A stretch of DNA of 64,000 bases from a virus, in IMG/VR virus record IMGVR_UViG_3300030117_001886, positions 1-64,000 of that record, one strand, 5' to 3'. The position numbers and the translations under genes were made by a program. Under the pieces are notes generated by a model that was given only the letters and a program-made list of their open reading frames with translations, ran no database searches and was not told the DNA's origin. Of this stretch, positions 1 to 10,962 are shown piece after piece; positions within the stretch are counted from its first letter, which is position 1, and every line of letters begins with the position of its first letter.

Positions 1-2
1 AA

Positions 3-3000
3 AAAGAGGCTGATAATATTATAGGAGGCATAGAGTTAGACTATAGGGATAACAACAGCGGCCTAAAAGGTGAGAAGATTACTAGACAGAAAGCACTAAA
101 TTTACTAAAGAAACTTTTACCAGACATGTTTGATAAGAGTGGTAAAATTATACCAAGCATGCTTTCTATGTTAAACTTTGCAGAGATGGAAAGAATGACT
201 GGTAGGACAGATGTTCTTGGTAGATTCTCAAAAGGAGTTATATTCTTACTGGAAGATAAGACAGGCGTATATGAGAATGTAGTACGTCACGAAGCATTAC
301 ATAAAGTAATATGGAACTATCTTACGCCTGCAGAACGTACAGCCTTATACAAGGCAGCTAGACAAAGATATAAAATGCCTGAAGGCATATTCAGTAATAA
401 AGAGGTAGAAGAGAAATTAGCTGATGAGTTTATGACTTACAGGCAAAAGCCTGAATCATTCAAGGATGCTATAGGTAGATTCTTCAAGAAGCTTCTTAAA
501 CTATTTGGGTTCTATCAAAAGAATGTAAACAATATAGATGCATTCTTTGCTAATGTAGAAAGCGGATACTTCTCTGGTAAAATGTATACACCAACAGATG
601 TAACAGGACTTAACTATATAGATATAGAAAAAACATTTGGGACTGTTCAGGTGTACAGAGACTCGTCTAAGATATTTAAAAGTCTTATGGCGAATAACAT
701 GGACACAAATAACAAGAAGGCTGCTATAGACAAAGAGTCTAAGAAAGTTTTGCGTCCGCCAGTAAGTAGAGATGAGGCTCTTAGAATGACAGCTCAGCAA
801 GTTTTAAATAATCTTGCAAAGATGGAGCAGATAGCTAACCCTACTGTAGATCAGAAGAGACTTATAGCGGCAACTAGAAAACTTTCACAAGAGAAAGTAC
901 TAAGAACATTATTTAAAGAATACTACGAGAGAGACTATAAGTCCTTAGGGGTTGACCTTGAGATAGAAGAAGATGTAGATGCAGTAAACTTAAAAGAGAT
1001 TATTGAAAGAGCTTTTGAAAAGGACCACAGTCTTAGTCTATCAGAAGAGGTTGTTGACTTTTTATCTGGTTTAACTTATCAGCAAAAAGGTACAGATACT
1101 ATCAATCGTATAAATATAAAACACGGCTATTTTATCTTATTACAATTATTTGCTGGATTAGATTCTAGCCTTGGTTTCAATGGTATGCAGGAGGAACTTC
1201 TTAAGAGAGGTAACAAACTAGGATTTAAACCTGGTACTGCAGGCCAGGCCGTGTTGAATAAACTAACAGATCCTAAACAAGGAATTTTAGTCCAAGGTTT
1301 AGTAGATAGATTGCCGGGTAGAAAAACTATACCTGGTAATGCTAGATTTATATCGGACAGCCTATTCATATTTGCAGAGGATAAAGGTAGAGATATATAC
1401 AATATCAACTCTGATATTGATCTAAATCCTGAAGGAATAAAAAGAGTAGTAAGGAAGAAAGACGAACTGTCTGAAGATTTCTTCTACAGAGTGTGGGAGG
1501 CTATGCAGGAGAATGGACAAGAGTTAAACTCTAACCAGCTTAAAGCGCTGTATGTAAAAGAGACATCACTCAAGACGCTTAAGAATATCTTTGTAAATGC
1601 TGCTAACCTAAGAAAAGAAAACTTTAAGATAGGTGAGTACGGTTTTGAGGGGGAAAGAAAAACTGTATCGTATTATACGCATAGATCATTTGGCACAGAC
1701 GCAGTACAAAGGTCCTCTGTAAAAGATGGTATGACAACTAATGCCAAGAGACTTGTAGGAAACATACCTGGTATTGTACAAAAATTAAAAGCAGGTAAGG
1801 TAGAGGATGGAGTTATACAGTTCTTAGATGTTATAGGATATGATAGATCTCTTATATCTCTAGACTTTAGAAATGAAGCTGAGCTTAAGCAGAAGCTTAT
1901 AAACATGCTAGAAGAGGTTAAGAACAATTATAACAAAGATGTAAACGTTTTATCTGAAACAGAGTTTGATTCTAATAACAAGCCGGTAGTAACTGGTAAG
2001 AGAAAGATTACTATGGAGGAGATAGTAGACAATGAAAGAAGTACTATCAATCTATTAGGGGGAGCATTACAGTTTATAGGGCAGGGACAGAAGCCACAGT
2101 CAATTAGAAATGCTGACGGTAAAAATATATACATATATCATAATAGTTCGTTTGGTGTAGACGCAATACTATCTCTACGCCCTAGCGTTAAGAAAAAAGA
2201 CAGAAAAGAATACTTACAAGAGGGTAGTCCTGCATACGAATCAACTTATCAATACAACATCTTTGCCAATGGTGATAGTAGAATATACAATATATCAGAT
2301 CACGATGCCATAATATCTTCATCAGGATTTGGTAGAGCTAAAGTATACAGAAGAGAAGAGGAGGCTAACTGGTCAGATAGAATATTTAACTATATGTTCT
2401 TAGCAGATATGTCTGCTATAGATAAAGGTAAAGGCATCTACAAGTACTCACAGCAGATACACACTGTAGCAGATGCGCCTACACTAAAAGCAGCTGAAGT
2501 TAGATTCTTAATGCCTGATCAACAAGATGCAGCTATTAGAAATATTATAAGACAATACAAATCTAAGCCTAAGAAAGGTAGTCCTACCGCATTTACTAGT
2601 ATACTAGAATCTAATATGAGTGAGTCTCAAAAGCTAGCTGCTATAAAGAAAGAGTTTAAGGACAGAGCTAAGAAGTTTGAGCAGGATTTAAAAGATAATA
2701 ATGTAAACTATAACACAAATGCCATGGATGGCATGATCAAAGTTCTACAGGACAATGGTGTTATAGCTAAGTTTGAAGGTGATGAGGTACAAAGAGAGGA
2801 GCAAAAAGAAAAAGCTAGATCTCAAGTTATAGAGCAGTTTGTAGCTAATTATGCAATTAATGGATTTTTCTTAAATCAGATTGTATTAGGAGATGAGGCA
2901 CAGTTTGGTAACTCATTTAAAGTAATTAAGCGTACTAAGATTGCATTTGCACCTGGATATAAAGGGTTTGTGAATGACAAGTATGGAATGCAGAAAGAGT

Positions 3001-6000
3001 TTAGAGTTATAGTTGCTAATGATCCAGTAGCTTCTCCATTTGATTACATGAGTGATAAAGAGAAAGCTGAGCTCCGTGATGATATGAAGGCTATAATGGG
3101 TACAGAGTTTGAGAACTTTGACATGGCAGATGCACAAGGGTTTATCCTACCCGAGCGTTTAGCTGACATACGTCGTGGTTTTGGTGGAGGTATAAAAATT
3201 AGTACTGTACTAAAACCTGTATACTTTGGTGTTGATAAGGACGGCCAAACGCATGCACTTAAGTATTCTGCAGTTGTATTAAGTGATGATTTAGTATCTA
3301 AACACCCAAAGCTTGAACAACTTAGAGCTGCAATGCGCGCTATAAAAGCAGATGAATATGTATTTAAAACCGCCAACAAGGTAGGTGGCCCTAAGACTCT
3401 TGCAGGAAATGGCTATGCAAATAATAAAGTAACTGTAGATGGTAAGTTTAATGAAGAGCTTAACTTTACAGAAGACAATGTTGTAGTACTAGACAACAAG
3501 AACTATAGAATACAGCTAGATCCAAAAGCTGCGTTAGATAAGGTAGTATCTAATCCTACACAGCTAGCGTATTTTATTGACTCAAATGGTTTGAACTTTG
3601 ATGCTGCATTGGAGTACTATCAGTTAATGGCTGATGAGTTTGGTATGGGGCTAGAAGACTTCTTAAGATCCGTAGACTCATTGTCAAGTAATAAAAAGAA
3701 TGCAATAGAATCTCCTGAAAAGTCTCGTATAAATAACATGCGTCACAGAGCTAGACAGATGGCTAAAGAGTCGGCTAGTAAACTTGCATCCTCTCAGAAG
3801 GAAGCCGAGGTTCTTAGTACAAAAGCTAAAGTTGTAGAGCAAGACAAGGATGGTAATAATATAGAAAGAGAAAGGTTTGCAATTGATATAAACTTCCCAG
3901 GTGTTGCGCAAAAGGTGTTCTCTCTAATGTTGTCTAAGTTAAAGAGTCACACTGTAAAAGTTAAGTTCCCGGGTTACAAAATGGTGTTACAATCATCATA
4001 CGGTATAGATGTGTACGAAGAGAATGGCGTAGCTAGAACAAAAGATCAAATAGAAAACTTTGATGAGAAGCTTGCTAACGGCACTATAAAGGAAAGACCT
4101 CTAAAACACATAACAGCTGATAAACCTTATGTAGAAGTACTTATGCCTTCTATACATCAAGATAGATTTCAGATAGGTGACACCATACTTAATGAAAACA
4201 TGATGGGCTTCCGTATACCATCTACAGAGCTACACTCTGCGGTTGCAATAAAGGTTGTAGGTTTTTACGATGCATTCCAAACTAATGTACTAGTTGCACC
4301 TAAAGAGCTCACACCGCTGCATGGTAGTGACTTTGACGTCGACTCATTATTTGTTATACGTAAAGCTACAATGTTTGATAACAAGAACGGTAAGAAGTTG
4401 TATGCAAACACTGAGAGAGGATTAGAGTATGATGGAGAATTAATACTAAGCATGGCTGACTCTTTAGATGTAGCCTTTTTAGACTTAGTGCAAGAAAGAT
4501 ACGATAAAGCTAGTGATAGATTTAGTGAGTTAATGGTAATGCAAAGACAGGAACTAGCAAAAGAAAGTCCTGTAAAAGAAGCGCTTGATGCCATTAAGGA
4601 TGAGATGTCTGCTATAAATAAATTTAGAGATATGGCAAGAGTTGCTATGAGCGCTATGCGTAAAAATAGAATGCTTGACATTTATCTAGAAGTTATAGAA
4701 GCTAAGAAGAACAGAGCTTCAATGCTTACGCCTATTGACATGAATAACTTTAAGGGTGTAAATAGAAAGGGCTCACCATCTGTGTTTGATGCTCTTAGCC
4801 AGGCTCTTGGCGTAGAGATACAAGATGGGCATGAGCAGTTATATAGAGACATAGACTTAACTGATCCTCTTGGAGAGAGATATATGCATCAAAGTAACAG
4901 ACAAGGCGCTATCCTTACAGGTGTATTTGCAAATGCAATGAAAGTTCTTATCTATGCTAGAAAAGGTAAAGAAGTACAAGGTAATAAAGAAGAGTCTAAA
5001 GTATTCTACGGATCGGGTGATAATATATTATCGTATGAAATAGATGGAACAAACTATGCAGAGCTAGCTATTAATGCAAGAGGTAAAGATATTAATGGTG
5101 AGATTGCAGATGAGTATGTATATGGTACACTTGACTCTGCAGTGAACGCTTCTATTGATAATGCTAATGAGCAGATACTAAATATAATTAATCTAAATGG
5201 AGATACCTCAGCTATATTTACAGTAATGACTAGTCAAGGTGTACCTCTAAACAAGGTTGCATTCTTTATAAACCAGCCTATTATACGAGCTGCTTCTAAA
5301 AGTCTAGGATTTAGAATGACTAACAAACTGACTAAGATGGAAGAGATTGTAGCAAATAAGCTAGGACTTAACATGGATCAGCTGCAGGAAAGATTAAACA
5401 GTGTAGAGATTACCACAGAAGCTCTTAGGGATGGCGTTCGTAGATCTGACATACTAGAAGATAAAAGTTTAGATGACATGCTTGGATCTTCAGCCAAAGA
5501 AATACTATTCCAATTAAAAGTAGCACAGCTTGCTAAGCAGATACTTAAGTATGATGACACTCTTAGAGATATGAGTAAAGCACTGAGTGTGTTACAATCT
5601 ATGCCATCTTCACTAGCTGAGTTTGAAGATATAAAACAAGCAGTTGCTAAAATTGTTACTAGAAATGAGGACGGCGAGCTAGAGTTTAACAGTAATTTTG
5701 GAATGCAAATTCCTGATATAACTAAAAACTTAGCACACTTTAGAGCTGCTATGGAAGTAGTAGAAGCGTTTGATGTGTACTCTGAAAATGCATTCCACAT
5801 TGCGCACCCAGAAATGAAAGCTTTTGCAGCTGAAATAGGTAAGCAGTTTACTACAGACAAGGAAGAAAAAGAAACTGCAAACGAAAAGAATGTAAAGATA
5901 CGTACTGAGTTTATCAAGTACATAGCATCTGGTATGCCGCAGTTTACTACGATTAATGAGCCTCTATATACATACAAAGGTACATTTGGTGAAATACAGT

Positions 6001-7025
6001 TTGGAGGTACTAGAGCATTTATTTCAGGACTAGTAGACGATATAGCTGCCTTGCCTAAATCTGAAAGATTCAACAACAAGTTCTTAGCAGGGCTAGAGAT
6101 TAGAAGACAGGCTGGTAGACCGTCGGGCGTGAAGTTCCAAGGCGCATCTAGTCTTACTCAGGAAGATTTAATAGAGTTATACAACGATTTTGAAAAGATA
6201 GATAGCGCTCTTAAGAATAAACTTGTTAAGTATGCTGTAGTTGCTGAGGGTATGTCGTTTGGTGCTGGCAATATTTCACTAGTAATAAATCCAAAATATT
6301 TTGCAGAGGTAGAGAAAGAGAGAACTAAGTTGATGGATAAAATATTCCCAGCTAAGTCTGCAGGAAAAGCAGCTATAGCCAAAGCGCAAACTATGCGGGA
6401 CAATATCCTAGAGCACTTTGAGATACAGTTTGCTTTAAATAATATTGGTAATGTAAAAAGAATATACGGTAAAGAAACAGGAGAGGTTCTAACTGAGAAT
6501 GGTAAGACTATAAGCAGAAAGGTAAAAGATGGAAGAGCTTACTATTTTAAGATGGAAAATGGTCCTAAGTATCTTAAGAATAACTTTACTGGTGACTTAT
6601 ACATAAGAACTTACCAGGAGACTAAGGATGATTTAATAGTTGCGTACTATGATAAGGTAGGAAAAAGTAATAATGCAGCATCCATATATTCGTCTTCAGA
6701 ATTTGTAATGGACAATGGTTATCTTATAAACCAAGCATTTAATAGTCAGCATCCTGTATTTGCAGTAAATAATTTAGATAGCAACACTGTAGATATTATT
6801 GGTAAGTATGAAGGATTAGAGCCTGGAATGATGGTAGGACTAGTGTTGAGAGGAGATGAGGTTAGAAGTAACATGCAGTTAGCAGAGATTGACTCTATAG
6901 ACACTTCCAAAGAAAATATAATTTCACTATCTTTGAAGCCTGGTAGATCAGTTGTTACTGGTAAGGCTGCTACAACTGAGGCATATAAAAGAGTGCATAA
7001 CGTGAAACCAAGTCAAGAGTGTTAA
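3..7025 (+). CDS. giant crAss-like phage RNA polymerase polypeptide (5' end missing)
   Basis: This reading frame is open to the left edge, so the ATG at 126 is internal and the gene begins before the window. The visible part exceeds 2330 residues. At 4200-4343 it shows a double-psi beta-barrel signature: GFRIPSTELHSAVAIK followed by HGSDFDVDSLF. The DFDVD triad (4329-4343) matches the metal-binding loop of YonO-like and crAss-like phage RNA polymerases, such as that of Cellulophaga phage phi14:2, which is packaged in the virion and transcribes early genes. Near the visible N-terminus HEALH (288-302), followed by a downstream EEKLADEF segment, resembles a zincin-type metallopeptidase site. The stop is one base from the next start, so both genes share the late transcript. 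I infer a virion RNA polymerase ejected with the DNA. The polymerase call is strong and the peptidase call tentative. Confidence 0.88.
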   Translation, partial: KEADNIIGGIELDYRDNNSGLKGEKITRQKALNLLKKLLPDMFDKSGKIIPSMLSMLNFAEMERMTGRTDVLGRFSKGVIFLLEDKTGVYENVVRHEALHKVIWNYLTPAERTALYKAARQRYKMPEGIFSNKEVEEKLADEFMTYRQKPESFKDAIGRFFKKLLKLFGFYQKNVNNIDAFFANVESGYFSGKMYTPTDVTGLNYIDIEKTFGTVQVYRDSSKIFKSLMANNMDTNNKKAAIDKESKKVLRPPVSRDEALRMTAQQVLNNLAKMEQIANPTVDQKRLIAATRKLSQEKVLRTLFKEYYERDYKSLGVDLEIEEDVDAVNLKEIIERAFEKDHSLSLSEEVVDFLSGLTYQQKGTDTINRINIKHGYFILLQLFAGLDSSLGFNGMQEELLKRGNKLGFKPGTAGQAVLNKLTDPKQGILVQGLVDRLPGRKTIPGNARFISDSLFIFAEDKGRDIYNINSDIDLNPEGIKRVVRKKDELSEDFFYRVWEAMQENGQELNSNQLKALYVKETSLKTLKNIFVNAANLRKENFKIGEYGFEGERKTVSYYTHRSFGTDAVQRSSVKDGMTTNAKRLVGNIPGIVQKLKAGKVEDGVIQFLDVIGYDRSLISLDFRNEAELKQKLINMLEEVKNNYNKDVNVLSETEFDSNNKPVVTGKRKITMEEIVDNERSTINLLGGALQFIGQGQKPQSIRNADGKNIYIYHNSSFGVDAILSLRPSVKKKDRKEYLQEGSPAYESTYQYNIFANGDSRIYNISDHDAIISSSGFGRAKVYRREEEANWSDRIFNYMFLADMSAIDKGKGIYKYSQQIHTVADAPTLKAAEVRFLMPDQQDAAIRNIIRQYKSKPKKGSPTAFTSILESNMSESQKLAAIKKEFKDRAKKFEQDLKDNNVNYNTNAMDGMIKVLQDNGVIAKFEGDEVQREEQKEKARSQVIEQFVANYAINGFFLNQIVLGDEAQFGNSFKVIKRTKIAFAPGYKGFVNDKYGMQKEFRVIVANDPVASPFDYMSDKEKAELRDDMKAIMGTEFENFDMADAQGFILPERLADIRRGFGGGIKISTVLKPVYFGVDKDGQTHALKYSAVVLSDDLVSKHPKLEQLRAAMRAIKADEYVFKTANKVGGPKTLAGNGYANNKVTVDGKFNEELNFTEDNVVVLDNKNYRIQLDPKAALDKVVSNPTQLAYFIDSNGLNFDAALEYYQLMADEFGMGLEDFLRSVDSLSSNKKNAIESPEKSRINNMRHRARQMAKESASKLASSQKEAEVLSTKAKVVEQDKDGNNIERERFAIDINFPGVAQKVFSLMLSKLKSHTVKVKFPGYKMVLQSSYGIDVYEENGVARTKDQIENFDEKLANGTIKERPLKHITADKPYVEVLMPSIHQDRFQIGDTILNENMMGFRIPSTELHSAVAIKVVGFYDAFQTNVLVAPKELTPLHGSDFDVDSLFVIRKATMFDNKNGKKLYANTERGLEYDGELILSMADSLDVAFLDLVQERYDKASDRFSELMVMQRQELAKESPVKEALDAIKDEMSAINKFRDMARVAMSAMRKNRMLDIYLEVIEAKKNRASMLTPIDMNNFKGVNRKGSPSVFDALSQALGVEIQDGHEQLYRDIDLTDPLGERYMHQSNRQGAILTGVFANAMKVLIYARKGKEVQGNKEESKVFYGSGDNILSYEIDGTNYAELAINARGKDINGEIADEYVYGTLDSAVNASIDNANEQILNIINLNGDTSAIFTVMTSQGVPLNKVAFFINQPIIRAASKSLGFRMTNKLTKMEEIVANKLGLNMDQLQERLNSVEITTEALRDGVRRSDILEDKSLDDMLGSSAKEILFQLKVAQLAKQILKYDDTLRDMSKALSVLQSMPSSLAEFEDIKQAVAKIVTRNEDGELEFNSNFGMQIPDITKNLAHFRAAMEVVEAFDVYSENAFHIAHPEMKAFAAEIGKQFTTDKEEKETANEKNVKIRTEFIKYIASGMPQFTTINEPLYTYKGTFGEIQFGGTRAFISGLVDDIAALPKSERFNNKFLAGLEIRRQAGRPSGVKFQGASSLTQEDLIELYNDFEKIDSALKNKLVKYAVVAEGMSFGAGNISLVINPKYFAEVEKERTKLMDKIFPAKSAGKAAIAKAQTMRDNILEHFEIQFALNNIGNVKRIYGKETGEVLTENGKTISRKVKDGRAYYFKMENGPKYLKNNFTGDLYIRTYQETKDDLIVAYYDKVGKSNNAASIYSSSEFVMDNGYLINQAFNSQHPVFAVNNLDSNTVDIIGKYEGLEPGMMVGLVLRGDEVRSNMQLAEIDSIDTSKENIISLSLKPGRSVVTGKAATTEAYKRVHNVKPSQEC

Positions 7026-7026
7026 T

Positions 7027-10000
7027 ATGGCGTGTACAATAAACATAACTCCAAAGTTTGGACCTAATACAGGTAAAGAAGTTCAGAGCAGTCTGTTTGA
7101 TCAAATAATAGAACTGATAAAAGATCCTAAATTAGCGCAGGATGCGTATGAGCAGGTCAGAACTCCTGAGTTTATAGAGAAGTTTGGTGATTGGATAAAT
7201 GATCCAGCGTCTTATGCGGCTAAGCTAGATGATAATGGTGAACCAATATTAGTAGAAAGAGATACAGAAGCAGTGTTCCCTGGTTTAGATGAACCTATTG
7301 TACTAAAACATTTTAAGAGAGAATCTACTGCTCCAACTGCAGAGAAATCTGTAGGCACAGATAATCTTAACGAGACACCTAACACAAAAGCACAGGCTAG
7401 GTTAGCTAACGTGATTAGAGAACTAAATCAAAAGAAAAATGAGGAGGGTCTTACCCTTGAAAATCCTGGTGACTCTGAGTATAAAGGTAATACAAGAAAC
7501 TATAAAAGATTAACCTCTGAGGTAAAGAAAATTGTTGGTAAAGATGTGGAGCTAGAGCGAGCCCGTAATGCAGCTGAAACTCTATACAACAACCTGCGCA
7601 AGGACCAACAAAAAGATACCATTACAATTGAAAACAAAGAGTTAAGTTTTGAGGAACTAGTAGAACACTACGAAAGAAAATTTAATACAGCAGCTGCATA
7701 CGGGCGAGCTATCCACAAGTATCTAGAATACCACATTACAAAAGATAGAGCTTTACTCACAGAGCTAGCATATATACGAGCAGCAAAAACAAAAGAAAAA
7801 GACGGCGTTGTACAAGACAAGATAGATGCCAAAGCTACTAACTGGGTAACAAATGAAAATGTTGCCAATCTATTGACAGCTAGGTCAGGATACACATCTA
7901 GTGATCAGATGGCTGCTGAGGTTATGATACATAGTGATATACTTGGTATAGCTACACAGGTAGATGGTTTATATTCACATGATGATAACACTATAAGTCT
8001 TGTTGATTGGAAGTCTGGTGCTGCTTTTCTTAATGACAAGTCAACTATACAACCCATGCCGTATGCTAGGGGTAAAGATTATATTGGTAACAGCAGATTA
8101 AATCAGGCTAAGCTTGAGCTTGCATTGCGTGCACTTATTATAAAAGAACAAGTACCTGATGCTAAGTTTAGAAACTTAACTGTACACCACATAGAAAGAA
8201 ACAACCTCGGTAAAAATCCATACAGAGTAGACCTGCAAGAGTTCTTAGGTATACTAAAAGAATACTTTAAAGCCACTGCACCAGAAAAATTTAGAGAGCT
8301 GGATGCAAAAGGATTGTTTGATTACAAAAACTACAAAGACTTTGAGGCTGAAGCTGACATGGTTCTTACTAAATATAAGCACCTACCTACTAAGGATCAG
8401 ATTCCTGCTCTTGAAAACGAAGCAATACTTCTAAGAAATAGAATTAATACAAACAATTCTAGAAATATTATAGAAGATAAAAGAAAGCTAGGCGAGATAA
8501 CAGCAGAAATATTAATGCTAAAGGATCATACTAAAGGTGAATTAGACCCTGATACTATTGCTGATAGCACTAACTCTACAGAAGGAATGCTTAAGGCCTA
8601 CTTTGGTACACTAGCTAATATGTCTAACAAACATATACAGCAATACAATGCACTGTTTCAAAGATCTAGAAAAGCATTTTTAGAAGATAAACAAAAAGAA
8701 AGAAGAAAGGCAGACAAACTATTTAAAGCTGTACAGGATGAATACTATAGAAAGAATCCTTTGAAAGGTATAACTAGAGATGTAGTATCATTTTATGATT
8801 ACAAAGATGTCTATGGTTTTGCATTTAAATTTAGAGAAGATGAGTCAGTATCCATGTCCGGGTTTTATAGAAAAACCATGGCGGAAGCAAAGAAAGAGTT
8901 AGCAAATGGTGAGATGACTCAAGCTCAATATAACTTATTAGAATATCTAGACAATACATGGAGAGGCACTTGGTCTGATGTTATGCTTAACACTGCATAT
9001 ACAGATAGATATGGTAAAGAAGTTTCTTATGCTAGAAGCATTGGCTTGATAGATGATGGTTCTAGAAGAGGAGTTGTAAATGATAATGGTAGTCTATCTG
9101 AAATGTTTGTACCAAGATTACCAAAAGAAATGTCTGAAACCGGTGAAGAGTATTCAGGTTTATTAAAGCCTCTTAAATCTCTATATCAAAAAGTAAAGAT
9201 GTTTGCACGTAGAAACTTTACATTCTTTGAAGAGGAGAATTATTACGCATACGGGGAAGATCAGTCTACATTCAATGCAGTGAAAGTAAGATACATGGGT
9301 AGTGAGTACTCTATTGCAGGACAGCAACATTCATTTAATTTAGAAAAAATGCATGCTGACTTTATGGTTAATATGTATCAAAAGAAATACATGGATAATG
9401 CGCTAGCAATGGCGGACGGCCTTAAGAGTTTTTATGAAGCTAAAGCAGAAGTAGGTCAAACAGCTAGATATGCTCCAGTAATTGAAATGTTAGATAAGCA
9501 TATTGTAAATACACTACTACAAGAGTTAGGATATAGACAGGCAGTGTTAACAAAAAAACAAATTACAATACCTGCCTTATACCCAGGAGGTAAAGTACAA
9601 ACAATAAATCTTTGGAAAGGTCTTATGGCATTAAAAAATCTTGCAACAGCAAAAGCATTATGGTTAAAAGCTGTAGCAGGTACATTTAATGGTTTACTTA
9701 TTACATTTCAAACTGCAGTTAATGCAGCTTCAGGTAGTATATCAAAACGTGTACTAAGAGCACAAGGTTTATCTACAGATGATATTGACTTTACTATATC
9801 TGATTTACTATTTGGTGTAGGTGAAATGACAAAGTATTATGCAGATATTTTAAATCCTCTTGCAGATAAGAGAGATAACAAAATGTATAACTTATTACAG
9901 AAGTTTAACTATCTACCTGATAACTATGATTATGCATCTGATCCAAAAGAACTGCGCATGACTAAAAATAGTTTGTTTAGATATTCTAATCTATTTTTCT

Positions 10001-10962
10001 TTCACTCAATACACGAGGAGTGGGGGCATGGTGTGTTATTAGCTGCTCAAATGAGAAAGATAAAAATGGCTGACGGATCAAATATATGGGATAGTTATAA
10101 TGATGATGGGTCGTTCAAAGAGTTTAAGGAAGATGGTTCTAGAAATGTTAGGGGATTAAGAAAAGGTAGAACAAAAGCTCAGGATGAAGTTATTAGTGAT
10201 CTTACAGCGGAAGAGTTAAATAGAATGTATAAAGCTAGTACACTTATACATGGTGCGTATAGATCTTGGGAAAGAGCTGCAATAGAAAGTTATGTACTTG
10301 GGCAATGGTTCTTACAGTTTAAAAAATATTTACCTGCCATACTATTTAGAGAGTGGGAAGGTAGACATGAGGATTTCAATCTTGGATATTTTAAATATGC
10401 AGATGAAAATGGTAATAGAAAAACTGAAATTGTAGATGGTGTAGAGTTAGATGTTATGGAATGGCATTCTGCTATGCATGAAGGAAGGGCTAGAGTTATG
10501 GGAGGAGTTTTGCTAGCAGGTCTAGGAATGAAATCATTTAGAAGTCCTGCAGGTAGAGGAGACTATAGATTTAGTCAGCTAAGCGGAAGAGATAAAGTAG
10601 GTGTAGTAGGATTAACAACTAGTTTATTTTTTAGTCTTTTGTTTTGGATTGCACTTGGTGCATACTTTGAAGATGATGAAGATAATCCATATGCAAAAAG
10701 ATTTGGATTCCTTGCAGCGGATGGGTTACAAGGTTTTAACCCGCGTGAGGTATTACGTACAGTTAAGAATCCACTTGCAGTAATTACACAATTAAATAAT
10801 TTAGCTGATGGGCTATCACAGATGATAGTATCAGGAGTATCCGGTGACTTTACTGGGGAAGGAAAGTTAAAAGGTCAGAATCAAGTTATGAAAGAAGTAC
10901 CGTTCTTATCTATACAAGCAGAACTAGAACGTTACGAACTTGTAGGAGGAACAGAAAGGTAA
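7027..10962 (+). CDS. large virion-type protein with PD-(D/E)XK (Cas4/RecB-like) nuclease motif and a membrane segment
   Basis: This 1311-residue protein is encoded directly behind the RNA polymerase gene. The N-terminus has TPEFIEKFGDWIND followed by DDNGEP, a segment typical of large polyvalent phage proteins. At residues about 225-330 it has a Cas4/RecB-like nuclease pattern: AYGRAIHKYLEYH, then QVDGL, then LVDWKSG with D327 and K329 as candidate metal-site residues. The C-terminal third is helical and has one strongly hydrophobic stretch near residues 1191-1213 that could span a membrane. crAss-like phages encode very large proteins beside the RNA polymerase that are packaged and ejected, so I infer an ejected protein. 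Whether the nuclease is active and on what substrate is unknown. It is the last gene of the rightward block. Confidence 0.7.
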   Translation: MACTINITPKFGPNTGKEVQSSLFDQIIELIKDPKLAQDAYEQVRTPEFIEKFGDWINDPASYAAKLDDNGEPILVERDTEAVFPGLDEPIVLKHFKRESTAPTAEKSVGTDNLNETPNTKAQARLANVIRELNQKKNEEGLTLENPGDSEYKGNTRNYKRLTSEVKKIVGKDVELERARNAAETLYNNLRKDQQKDTITIENKELSFEELVEHYERKFNTAAAYGRAIHKYLEYHITKDRALLTELAYIRAAKTKEKDGVVQDKIDAKATNWVTNENVANLLTARSGYTSSDQMAAEVMIHSDILGIATQVDGLYSHDDNTISLVDWKSGAAFLNDKSTIQPMPYARGKDYIGNSRLNQAKLELALRALIIKEQVPDAKFRNLTVHHIERNNLGKNPYRVDLQEFLGILKEYFKATAPEKFRELDAKGLFDYKNYKDFEAEADMVLTKYKHLPTKDQIPALENEAILLRNRINTNNSRNIIEDKRKLGEITAEILMLKDHTKGELDPDTIADSTNSTEGMLKAYFGTLANMSNKHIQQYNALFQRSRKAFLEDKQKERRKADKLFKAVQDEYYRKNPLKGITRDVVSFYDYKDVYGFAFKFREDESVSMSGFYRKTMAEAKKELANGEMTQAQYNLLEYLDNTWRGTWSDVMLNTAYTDRYGKEVSYARSIGLIDDGSRRGVVNDNGSLSEMFVPRLPKEMSETGEEYSGLLKPLKSLYQKVKMFARRNFTFFEEENYYAYGEDQSTFNAVKVRYMGSEYSIAGQQHSFNLEKMHADFMVNMYQKKYMDNALAMADGLKSFYEAKAEVGQTARYAPVIEMLDKHIVNTLLQELGYRQAVLTKKQITIPALYPGGKVQTINLWKGLMALKNLATAKALWLKAVAGTFNGLLITFQTAVNAASGSISKRVLRAQGLSTDDIDFTISDLLFGVGEMTKYYADILNPLADKRDNKMYNLLQKFNYLPDNYDYASDPKELRMTKNSLFRYSNLFFFHSIHEEWGHGVLLAAQMRKIKMADGSNIWDSYNDDGSFKEFKEDGSRNVRGLRKGRTKAQDEVISDLTAEELNRMYKASTLIHGAYRSWERAAIESYVLGQWFLQFKKYLPAILFREWEGRHEDFNLGYFKYADENGNRKTEIVDGVELDVMEWHSAMHEGRARVMGGVLLAGLGMKSFRSPAGRGDYRFSQLSGRDKVGVVGLTTSLFFSLLFWIALGAYFEDDEDNPYAKRFGFLAADGLQGFNPREVLRTVKNPLAVITQLNNLADGLSQMIVSGVSGDFTGEGKLKGQNQVMKEVPFLSIQAELERYELVGGTER

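What the first reader, a model, noticed from the sequence alone, without database searches (positions are those of the whole stretch)
288..4343. HExxH peptidase-like motif on the RNA polymerase polypeptide
HEALH at 288-302, with a possible third ligand in EEKLADEF, lies about 1350 residues before the catalytic DFDVD of the same chain. A metallopeptidase fused to a virion RNA polymerase could process the polymerase or ejected proteins, or act on host proteins after entry. The exact loop (DFDVD, where phi14:2 is described with DFDID) also extends the known variation.
Basis: partly seen in the sequence, partly recalled or inferred. Interest (0 to 1): 0.58.

Follow-up and report, generated by a model that had tools for sequence, protein, structure and literature searches.

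The report
Zinc-protease domain beside crAss-phage RNA polymerase
A crAss-like phage carries, on the same giant protein as the RNA polymerase it is thought to inject into bacteria, a real and widely conserved zinc-protease-type domain, repeating in an unrelated polymerase the arrangement known from phage N4.

Summary
In detail: HEALH is at 288-302 and DFDVD at 4329-4343, 1347 residues apart in one frame. HEALH is not near the protein's start: the contig ends overlap in frame, so the polypeptide has about 4715 residues and HEALH is residue ~2471. The motif belongs to a true zincin domain. In 95 aligned relatives both His and the catalytic Glu are invariant and the third ligand (E137) is Glu in 92 of 94. 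AlphaFold gives a confident zincin core; the closest solved folds are HExxH metallopeptidases; it is homologous to the phage N4 vRNAP zincin (hhalign 95.7%). In an RNAP-centred scan 45 of 71 loci carry this type and 65 of 71 some zincin. It sits where the giant protein splits into two genes in other crassviruses, behind a Pro-rich linker. Most likely it is a packaged, ejected zinc peptidase acting on the giant polypeptide or co-ejected cargo; activity and substrate are inferred. Fused polypeptides without it, and three HExxE variants, argue against obligatory self-processing. DFDVD is common (52 of 169 loci). No held paper seen reports the domain, but two key crAss RNAP papers were not held.

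The parts
3..7025 (+). C-terminal 2340 residues of the giant polypeptide (about 4715 residues in all; the first ~2375 are encoded from record position 73020, i.e. L001:9020 onward, across the circular join)
1..108 (.). terminal overlap: same as the last 108 bases of the record (104 of 108 identical, same frame); the genome is circular or circularly permuted
75..587 (+). zincin domain (residues ~25-195; blocks of residues 21-150 modelled with mean pLDDT 88-96): helix 28-38, strands 71-76/79-83/88-90, HExxH helix 91-106, helix 109-122, E137 helix 132-148
288..302 (+). HEALH: zinc ligands H96 and H100, catalytic E97
408..431 (+). EEKLADEF: E137 (nt 411-413) is the conserved third ligand; A140 and F143 nearly invariant
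2820..5288 (+). two-barrel RNA polymerase region matching Cellulophaga phage phi14:2 g066 (query residues 940-1762, 22.4% identity, E 7e-19)
4329..4343 (+). DFDVD, catalytic metal-binding loop of the RNA polymerase
7027..10962 (+). next giant protein of the block (1311 residues), in the position of crAss001 gp49 / phi14:2 g065; no HExxH found in it

Best explanation
HEALH is the active-site motif of a zincin (gluzincin-type) zinc metallopeptidase domain that sits between the upstream module of a ~4715-residue virion polypeptide (which includes an SF1-helicase-type ATPase) and the two-barrel virion RNA polymerase. The polypeptide is packaged and ejected with the DNA. The zincin most likely acts as a peptidase on this giant polypeptide, or on co-ejected cargo, during or after ejection, for example by cutting the Pro-rich linker just in front of it and so freeing a zincin-RNAP module. 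Shown here: the domain, its conserved metal ligands, its modelled fold, its homology to the phage N4 vRNAP zincin, its fixed place before the RNAP, its position at natural gene splits, and the linker. Inferred: packaging (from relatives), zinc binding, proteolysis, substrate and timing. My odds: zincin fold and metal site ~0.95, catalytically active ~0.7, self- or cargo-directed rather than host-directed ~0.5.
For: Conservation: H96, E97, H100 in 95 of 95 and E137 in 92 of 94 rows. Of the 80 stored viral loci, 30 carry only the second-motif (E..A..F) pattern and not the HExxH pattern, and all 30 have HExxH with varied middle residues. RNAP-centred scan: 45 of 71 loci with at least 5.6 kb upstream carry this domain, 1310-1700 residues before the RNAP hit. 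Fold: AlphaFold model, residues 21-150 in blocks of pLDDT 88-96, helix-strands-HExxH helix-Glu helix; the top VIA-align rows are HExxH metallopeptidases (lethal factor catalytic domain Z 6.0 over 135 residues, PPEP-1/2/3 Z 4.8-5.5, MATCAP, VgrG2b, collagenases). Homology to the N4 gp50 zincin: hhalign 95.7%, E 9.4e-9, HExxH aligned on HExxH. Module border: the gene ends 147-277 residues after HExxH in 7 loci, and begins 81-221 residues before it in 4. Linker: residues -120 to -60 from HExxH are poor in hydrophobics (-0.089, se 0.008, at -100) and rich in Pro over up to 140 loci; no such dip follows the domain. Packaging in a relative: crAss001 gp47, which ends in this domain, is a detected virion protein (PMC10172136 and PMC6235969, passages).
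Against: No activity, zinc content or cleavage was measured. Foldseek alone found no significant PDB match (best E 0.62) and the VIA-align Z of 6.0 is below the tool's own level for a clear match. No Pfam family matches. 26 of 71 RNAP loci lack this type, several of them with fused giant ORFs (for example L114, L116, L117, L118, L126), and 6 of 71 have no zincin found at all, so it cannot be obligatory for maturing a fused polypeptide. Three loci (L150, L156, L161) keep the domain but read HExxE. crAss001 and Dulem virus 41 keep it though the two proteins are already separate genes. The crAss001 virion gel has bands at 270 and >300 kDa (PMC6235969 passage), so gp47 (262.5 kDa) may be largely uncut in the virion. 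N4 vRNAP is packaged unprocessed (PMC5512222 passage) and its recombinant full-length form was imaged (PMC12633501 passages).
Confidence: 0.5

Rival explanations
1. Host-directed effector: the zincin is ejected with the polymerase and cuts one or more host bacterial proteins early in infection (a defence, transcription or envelope protein).
For: Iyer et al. propose this as one role of zincins in ejected polyvalent proteins (PMC5512222 passages). Patchy presence (45 of 71) and complementarity with a second zincin type (type II in 20 of 26 loci lacking type I, against 10 of 45 having it; Fisher p 1.2e-5, uncorrected for phylogeny) could fit a target-driven arms race. The domain is kept where the neighbouring proteins are already separate genes.
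Against: Its place relative to the RNAP is nearly fixed (1310-1700 residues) across very distant relatives, whereas an effector could sit anywhere. No target is known.
Confidence: 0.25
2. Structural or regulatory domain: the zincin fold is kept as a folding, packaging or RNAP-clamping module, with zinc structural or absent.
For: Three loci keep the domain (110-112 bits) with HExxE. The N4 C-terminal region that contains its zincin lowers RNAP activity of the full-length enzyme (PMC12633501 passages), and the region with the N4 MPTase is needed for encapsidation (PMC5512222 passage).
Against: H, E and H are invariant in 95 of 95 rows, including the general-base Glu that a structural zinc site does not need. 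The HExxE cases are only 3 of 46 complete domains in the RNAP-centred set.
Confidence: 0.2
3. Non-peptidase HExxH enzyme, such as an alpha-ketoglutarate-dependent HExxH oxygenase.
For: HExxH is not exclusive to peptidases; the N4 structure paper points to radical-SAM-linked HExxH enzymes (PMC12633501 passage).
Against: The third ligand on a later helix and the element order match gluzincins; the best solved matches are peptidases.
Confidence: 0.04
4. Chance motif in a helical region of the polypeptide.
For: 88 of 5000 shuffles of the chain contain HExxH.
Against: Conservation of all four catalytic positions over distant relatives and a zincin model.
Confidence: 0.01

Closest known systems
Phage N4 virion RNA polymerase gp50 and its C1 zincin domain (Schitoviridae; polyvalent-protein MPTase, Iyer et al. 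2017, PMC5512222)
   Same: A giant ejected virion RNAP polypeptide with a HExxH zincin on the same chain; profile homology of the zincins (hhalign 95.7%).
   Different: The N4 polymerase is T7-like, this one is of the two-barrel type; N4's zincin follows the RNAP, this one precedes it; motif style HEA[FW]H..EExLAExF here against HELxHAATF..ALNEFMAW in N4.
Cellulophaga phage phi14:2 g066, structure 6VR4 (Crassvirales virion RNAP)
   Same: RNAP region of the same family, same gene block.
   Different: phi14:2 lacks this zincin in its whole genome (0 matches), has the upstream protein and RNAP as separate genes, and has an N4-style HEIMH motif in the neighbouring g065.
crAss001 gp47 (cargo protein) and gp50 (RNAP)
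   Same: gp47 ends in the same zincin domain (HEAFH, whole-record match E 1.7e-83).
   Different: gp47 and gp50 are separate genes on opposite strands.
Thermus phage P23-45 gp96, tail tape-measure protein fused to a two-barrel virion RNAP (PMC10770324)
   Same: Two-barrel vRNAP and a metallopeptidase domain on one giant protein (passages).
   Different: Tape-measure protein of a long-tailed phage, 5002 residues; relation of its peptidase to this domain was not tested.
M34-like metallopeptidases (lethal factor catalytic domain, PPEP-1/2/3); the family name M34 is recalled
   Same: Nearest solved folds (Z 4.8-6.0).
   Different: 10-19% identity over ~130 residues; no such sequence match in the PDB profile search.

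Membership tests
Zincin / gluzincin metallopeptidase | HExxH in a helix with an invariant general-base Glu | tested here: met
   95 of 95 rows H96, E97, H100; helix 91-106; 43 of 46 complete domains in the RNAP-centred set, the other 3 HExxE
Zincin / gluzincin metallopeptidase | third ligand Glu on a later helix | tested here: met
   E137 in 92 of 94 rows, helix 132-148
Zincin / gluzincin metallopeptidase | core of N-terminal helix, beta-sheet, active-site helix | tested here: met
   model helix 28-38, strands 71-76, 79-83, 88-90, helix 91-106
Zincin / gluzincin metallopeptidase | bound zinc and peptidase activity | not testable with these tools
   needs protein
Polyvalent-protein MPTase (N4-type) | sequence homology to the N4 gp50 zincin | tested here: met
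   hhalign A2 against A4: 95.7%, E 9.4e-9 for one pair
Polyvalent-protein MPTase (N4-type) | multidomain protein carried in the virion and ejected | not testable with these tools
   for this phage; the homologue crAss001 gp47 is a detected virion protein
MEROPS M34 (lethal factor / PPEP; name recalled) | family-level sequence similarity and catalytic Tyr before the third ligand (recalled) | tested here: inconclusive
   fold match Z 4.8-6.0; profile search of PDB sequences found no peptidase; column 130, seven residues before E137, is not a conserved Tyr, but no residue-level alignment to M34 was made
Crassvirales virion RNA polymerase | RNAP with DxDxD loop, homologous to phi14:2 g066 | tested here: met
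   tblastn E 7e-19; D61, D63, D65 invariant in 46 rows
Crassvirales | crAss-type structural genes | tested here: met
   portal protein matches 152 records, the listed best ones crassviruses, 33.1% to cr1_1, E 5e-97

The most novel reading that the evidence does not exclude
The zincin is the switch that starts infection transcription: carried silent in the virion between the ejection/helicase module and the RNA polymerase, it cuts the Pro-rich linker once refolded in the cell, releases the polymerase and so turns on early transcription. Phage N4, with an unrelated polymerase, would use a homologous zincin for the same step, and nearly all crAss-type RNAPs (65 of 71 loci) would carry one kind or another of such a protease.
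Probability: 0.15. Interest if true: 0.85.

Novelty: new variant of a known kind. Interest (0 to 1): 0.57.

Why it matters
Crassviruses are among the most abundant human-gut phages, and their giant cargo proteins are mostly unexplained. A conserved protease-type domain at the border between the upstream module and the polymerase gives a concrete, testable function for part of the gp47-type proteins. It also shows that two unrelated classes of virion RNA polymerase (T7-like in N4, two-barrel in crassviruses) are both coupled to homologous zincins, which suggests a shared need of ejected polymerases and reopens the question of what the N4 zincin does.

Tried and rejected
Single-sequence searches led nowhere: Pfam gave nothing above its cut-offs on the chain; PHROGs gave only phrog_15243 over residues 89-133/134 (E 0.046 and 0.019); tblastn of residues 1-832 at E 1e-5 found no phage; scans of viral contigs with the window's own zincin region or RNAP region alone found none. 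Progress came from a looser tblastn of the motif region and then from alignments.

HMM search of PDB sequences with the domain profile found only reovirus sigma-1, not peptidases, and the full chain found nothing. Foldseek against PDB had no hit below E 0.001. BFVD gave 11 matches below E 0.001, 8 named as crAss-like phages and 3 without names.

Rejected: chance motif; N-terminal location; DFDVD as new variation; obligatory polyprotein processing (fused ORFs without the domain). Not tested: whether type I and type II exchange along a tree (the Fisher test ignores phylogeny and near-duplicate loci).

One search counts 71 of 80 loci: 8 with under 5.6 kb upstream (4 of them with type II, L125 with a weak truncated type I, 3 with neither) and L111 (no RNAP hit at 1e-3, though it has the domain) were set apart. 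One search, with looser limits, had 48 of 73, including weak or truncated hits L101 and L125. In one search the strict pattern missed the third-ligand motif in 5 loci (L103, L104, L108, L110, L111); read by eye the printed sequences have an ExxA there. A2 uses 66 of 80 viral loci (near-duplicates, recoded ones and short ones left out); A1 leaves out L007, near-identical to L006. The 140 loci include overlaps between the two scans.
Full report
What is in the sequence. The window is the first 64,000 bases of an 80,250-base virus record. Frame 3..7025 is open from the window's first bases and reads HEALH at 288-302, EEKLADEF at 408-431 and DFDVD at 4329-4343. The record's last 108 bases equal the first 108 of the window at 104 positions, without gaps and in the same frame. 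The record is therefore best read as circular (or circularly permuted), and the polypeptide as about 2375 + 2340 = 4715 residues starting at L001:9020. HEALH is then residue ~2471, in the middle. The upstream part has an SF1-helicase-type ATPase region (AAA_30, E 1.3e-13, residues 1440-1559).

Which virus. The portal protein matches 152 phage records, the best being crassviruses (33.1% to cr1_1, E 5e-97). The RNAP region matches Crassvirales RNA polymerases, best phi14:2 g066 (22.4%, E 7e-19). The nearest portal identity is low, so this is a deep branch.

Is the motif real. A tblastn of the motif region alone at E up to 10 hit 16 records, 12 distinct phages: 9 named uncultured crassviruses, Dulem virus 41 and two unverified faecal phage clones. 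All 12 have HExxH there. Of five further crassviruses fetched through the RNAP, crAss001 and cr128_1 have it near the end of their gp47-type protein, while phi14:2, cr106_1 and cr111_1 do not; a profile search of whole records agrees for the four searched (crAss001 matches, those three do not). In the 14-row alignment the invariant columns are H96, E97, A98, H100, V102, E137, A140, F143 and G188 at 17-23% identity to the own sequence. With 80 environmental loci added, H96, E97 and H100 hold in 95 of 95 and E137 in 92 of 94. Thirty of the 80 carry only the second motif pattern, and all 30 have HExxH with changed neighbours.

A look that does not start from the motif. From the RNAP core (46-row alignment), 80 of 474 relatives were fetched. 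Of 71 with at least 5.6 kb upstream and an RNAP profile hit, 45 carry this domain, 1310-1700 residues before the RNAP hit. A second zincin style ([LF]HExxHAxT .. EF[VIL]AE, resembling N4's) is in 30 of 71, either 800-2230 residues after the RNAP hit or further upstream (1580-2750 residues before it). Sixty-five of 71 have at least one of the two, 10 both, 6 none. Among 46 complete domains of the first type, 43 read HExxH and three (L150, L156, L161) read HExxE.

Fold. An AlphaFold model from 67 sequences has residues 21-150 in ten-residue blocks of pLDDT 88-96 and the order helix, three strands, HExxH helix, helix, Glu helix, the zincin core as described by Iyer et al. (PMC5512222 passage). 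Foldseek alone found nothing significant in PDB. VIA-align of its best 516 chains put HExxH metallopeptidases on top, best Z 6.0 (4.4 A over 135 residues). That Z is modest, but the rows agree with each other and with the motif. Profile-profile comparison with 31 N4-type zincins gives 95.7% and E 9.4e-9 for one pair, aligning HExxH with HExxH; around the third ligand that alignment is shifted by five residues relative to the ExxA pattern, which I take as an alignment slip.

Where it sits. In most relatives the domain and the RNAP share one ORF. Where the giant gene is split, the break often falls beside the zincin: 147-277 residues after HExxH in L005 (Dulem virus 41), L013, L015 (crAss001), L016, L024, L037 and L058, or 81-221 residues before it in L032, L072, L073 and L089; other breaks lie further off (for example L050 and L063, L108). 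The 60 residues in front of the domain are poor in hydrophobic residues and rich in Pro (up to 140 loci); the window's own stretch, at the end of L001, is of that kind. No such stretch follows the domain. So the zincin looks like a separate module, loosely tied to the protein before it.

How it may work. The Glu that activates water is as conserved as the metal ligands, so I take the domain as catalytic in most lineages. gp47 of crAss001, which ends in it, is packaged. N4's vRNAP is packaged uncut and the region with its zincin is needed for encapsidation (PMC5512222 passage), and the C-terminal region holding it dampens the N4 polymerase (PMC12633501 passages). Together these favour action at or after ejection, on the polypeptide or its companions, with the linker as the most exposed site. 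Against a strict processing role stand fused polypeptides that lack it, HExxE variants, and split-gene phages that keep it. Host-protein cleavage remains a serious rival.

What is known. Iyer et al. 2017 describe zincins fused to N4-type RNAPs and propose self-processing; their text has no mention of crAss. P23-45 gp96 joins a two-barrel vRNAP to a metallopeptidase domain (PMC10770324 passages). For crassviruses, text searches for crAss-like + zincin + RNA polymerase gave no paper; crAss-like + metallopeptidase gave 8 and crAssphage + metalloprotease 7, of which only the P23-45 paper concerns a phage polymerase by its title; the broad search listed 12 of 960 papers, none on crassviruses by title. 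Term searches inside PMC7886860 (and part 1 of its section 7, read), PMC10172136, PMC12386605, PMC11054128 and PMC10136315 found no peptidase, protease or zincin (for PMC10172136 the terms were protease, peptidase, cleav and zinc). Yutin 2018 and Drobysheva 2021 were not held, and figures and supplements were not seen, so prior mention cannot be excluded.

Verdict. Novelty: a new variant of a known kind, the zincin-bearing ejected RNA polymerase.

Noticed in passing
L001:9020-16249 (record 73020-80249), residues 1440-1559: An SF1-helicase-type ATPase region (AAA_30, E 1.3e-13) lies on the same giant polypeptide, upstream of the zincin and RNAP.
   Followed up: partly
L103, L108, L110, L114, L116, L117, L119, L127, L130, L145, L164 and others; L004 ORF 18972-23240 residue 247: A second, N4-style zincin ([LF]HExxHAxT .. 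EF[VIL]AE) is widespread on crassvirus giant proteins, often C-terminal to the RNAP as in N4, and is commoner where the first type is missing (20 of 26 against 10 of 45).
   Followed up: partly
L150, L156, L161: A group of loci keeps the zincin domain but reads HE[IAV]FE, the second His replaced by Glu: natural active-site variants.
   Followed up: partly
window 1-108 and L001:16143-16250: Terminal overlap with 4 mismatches in 108 bases: probably strain variation within the assembly of a circular or permuted genome.
   Followed up: yes
L004:2099-3880 and L005:2089-9522 residue 143: Further HExxH motifs of other styles in crassvirus virion proteins: two HEFxHA in phi14:2 g070 (tail protein) and HELNHAYSD in Dulem virus 41.
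   Followed up: no
L002, L009, L010, L011, L012, L014: The giant RNAP genes of these crassviruses are open only if TAG is read as an amino acid, in line with published stop-codon reassignment.
   Followed up: no
L111 compared with L108: In L111 the zincin and RNAP hits fall in separate short ORFs (3919-5556 and 8209-9078), while the very similar L108 has longer ones: frame breaks, an intron or assembly errors.
   Followed up: no
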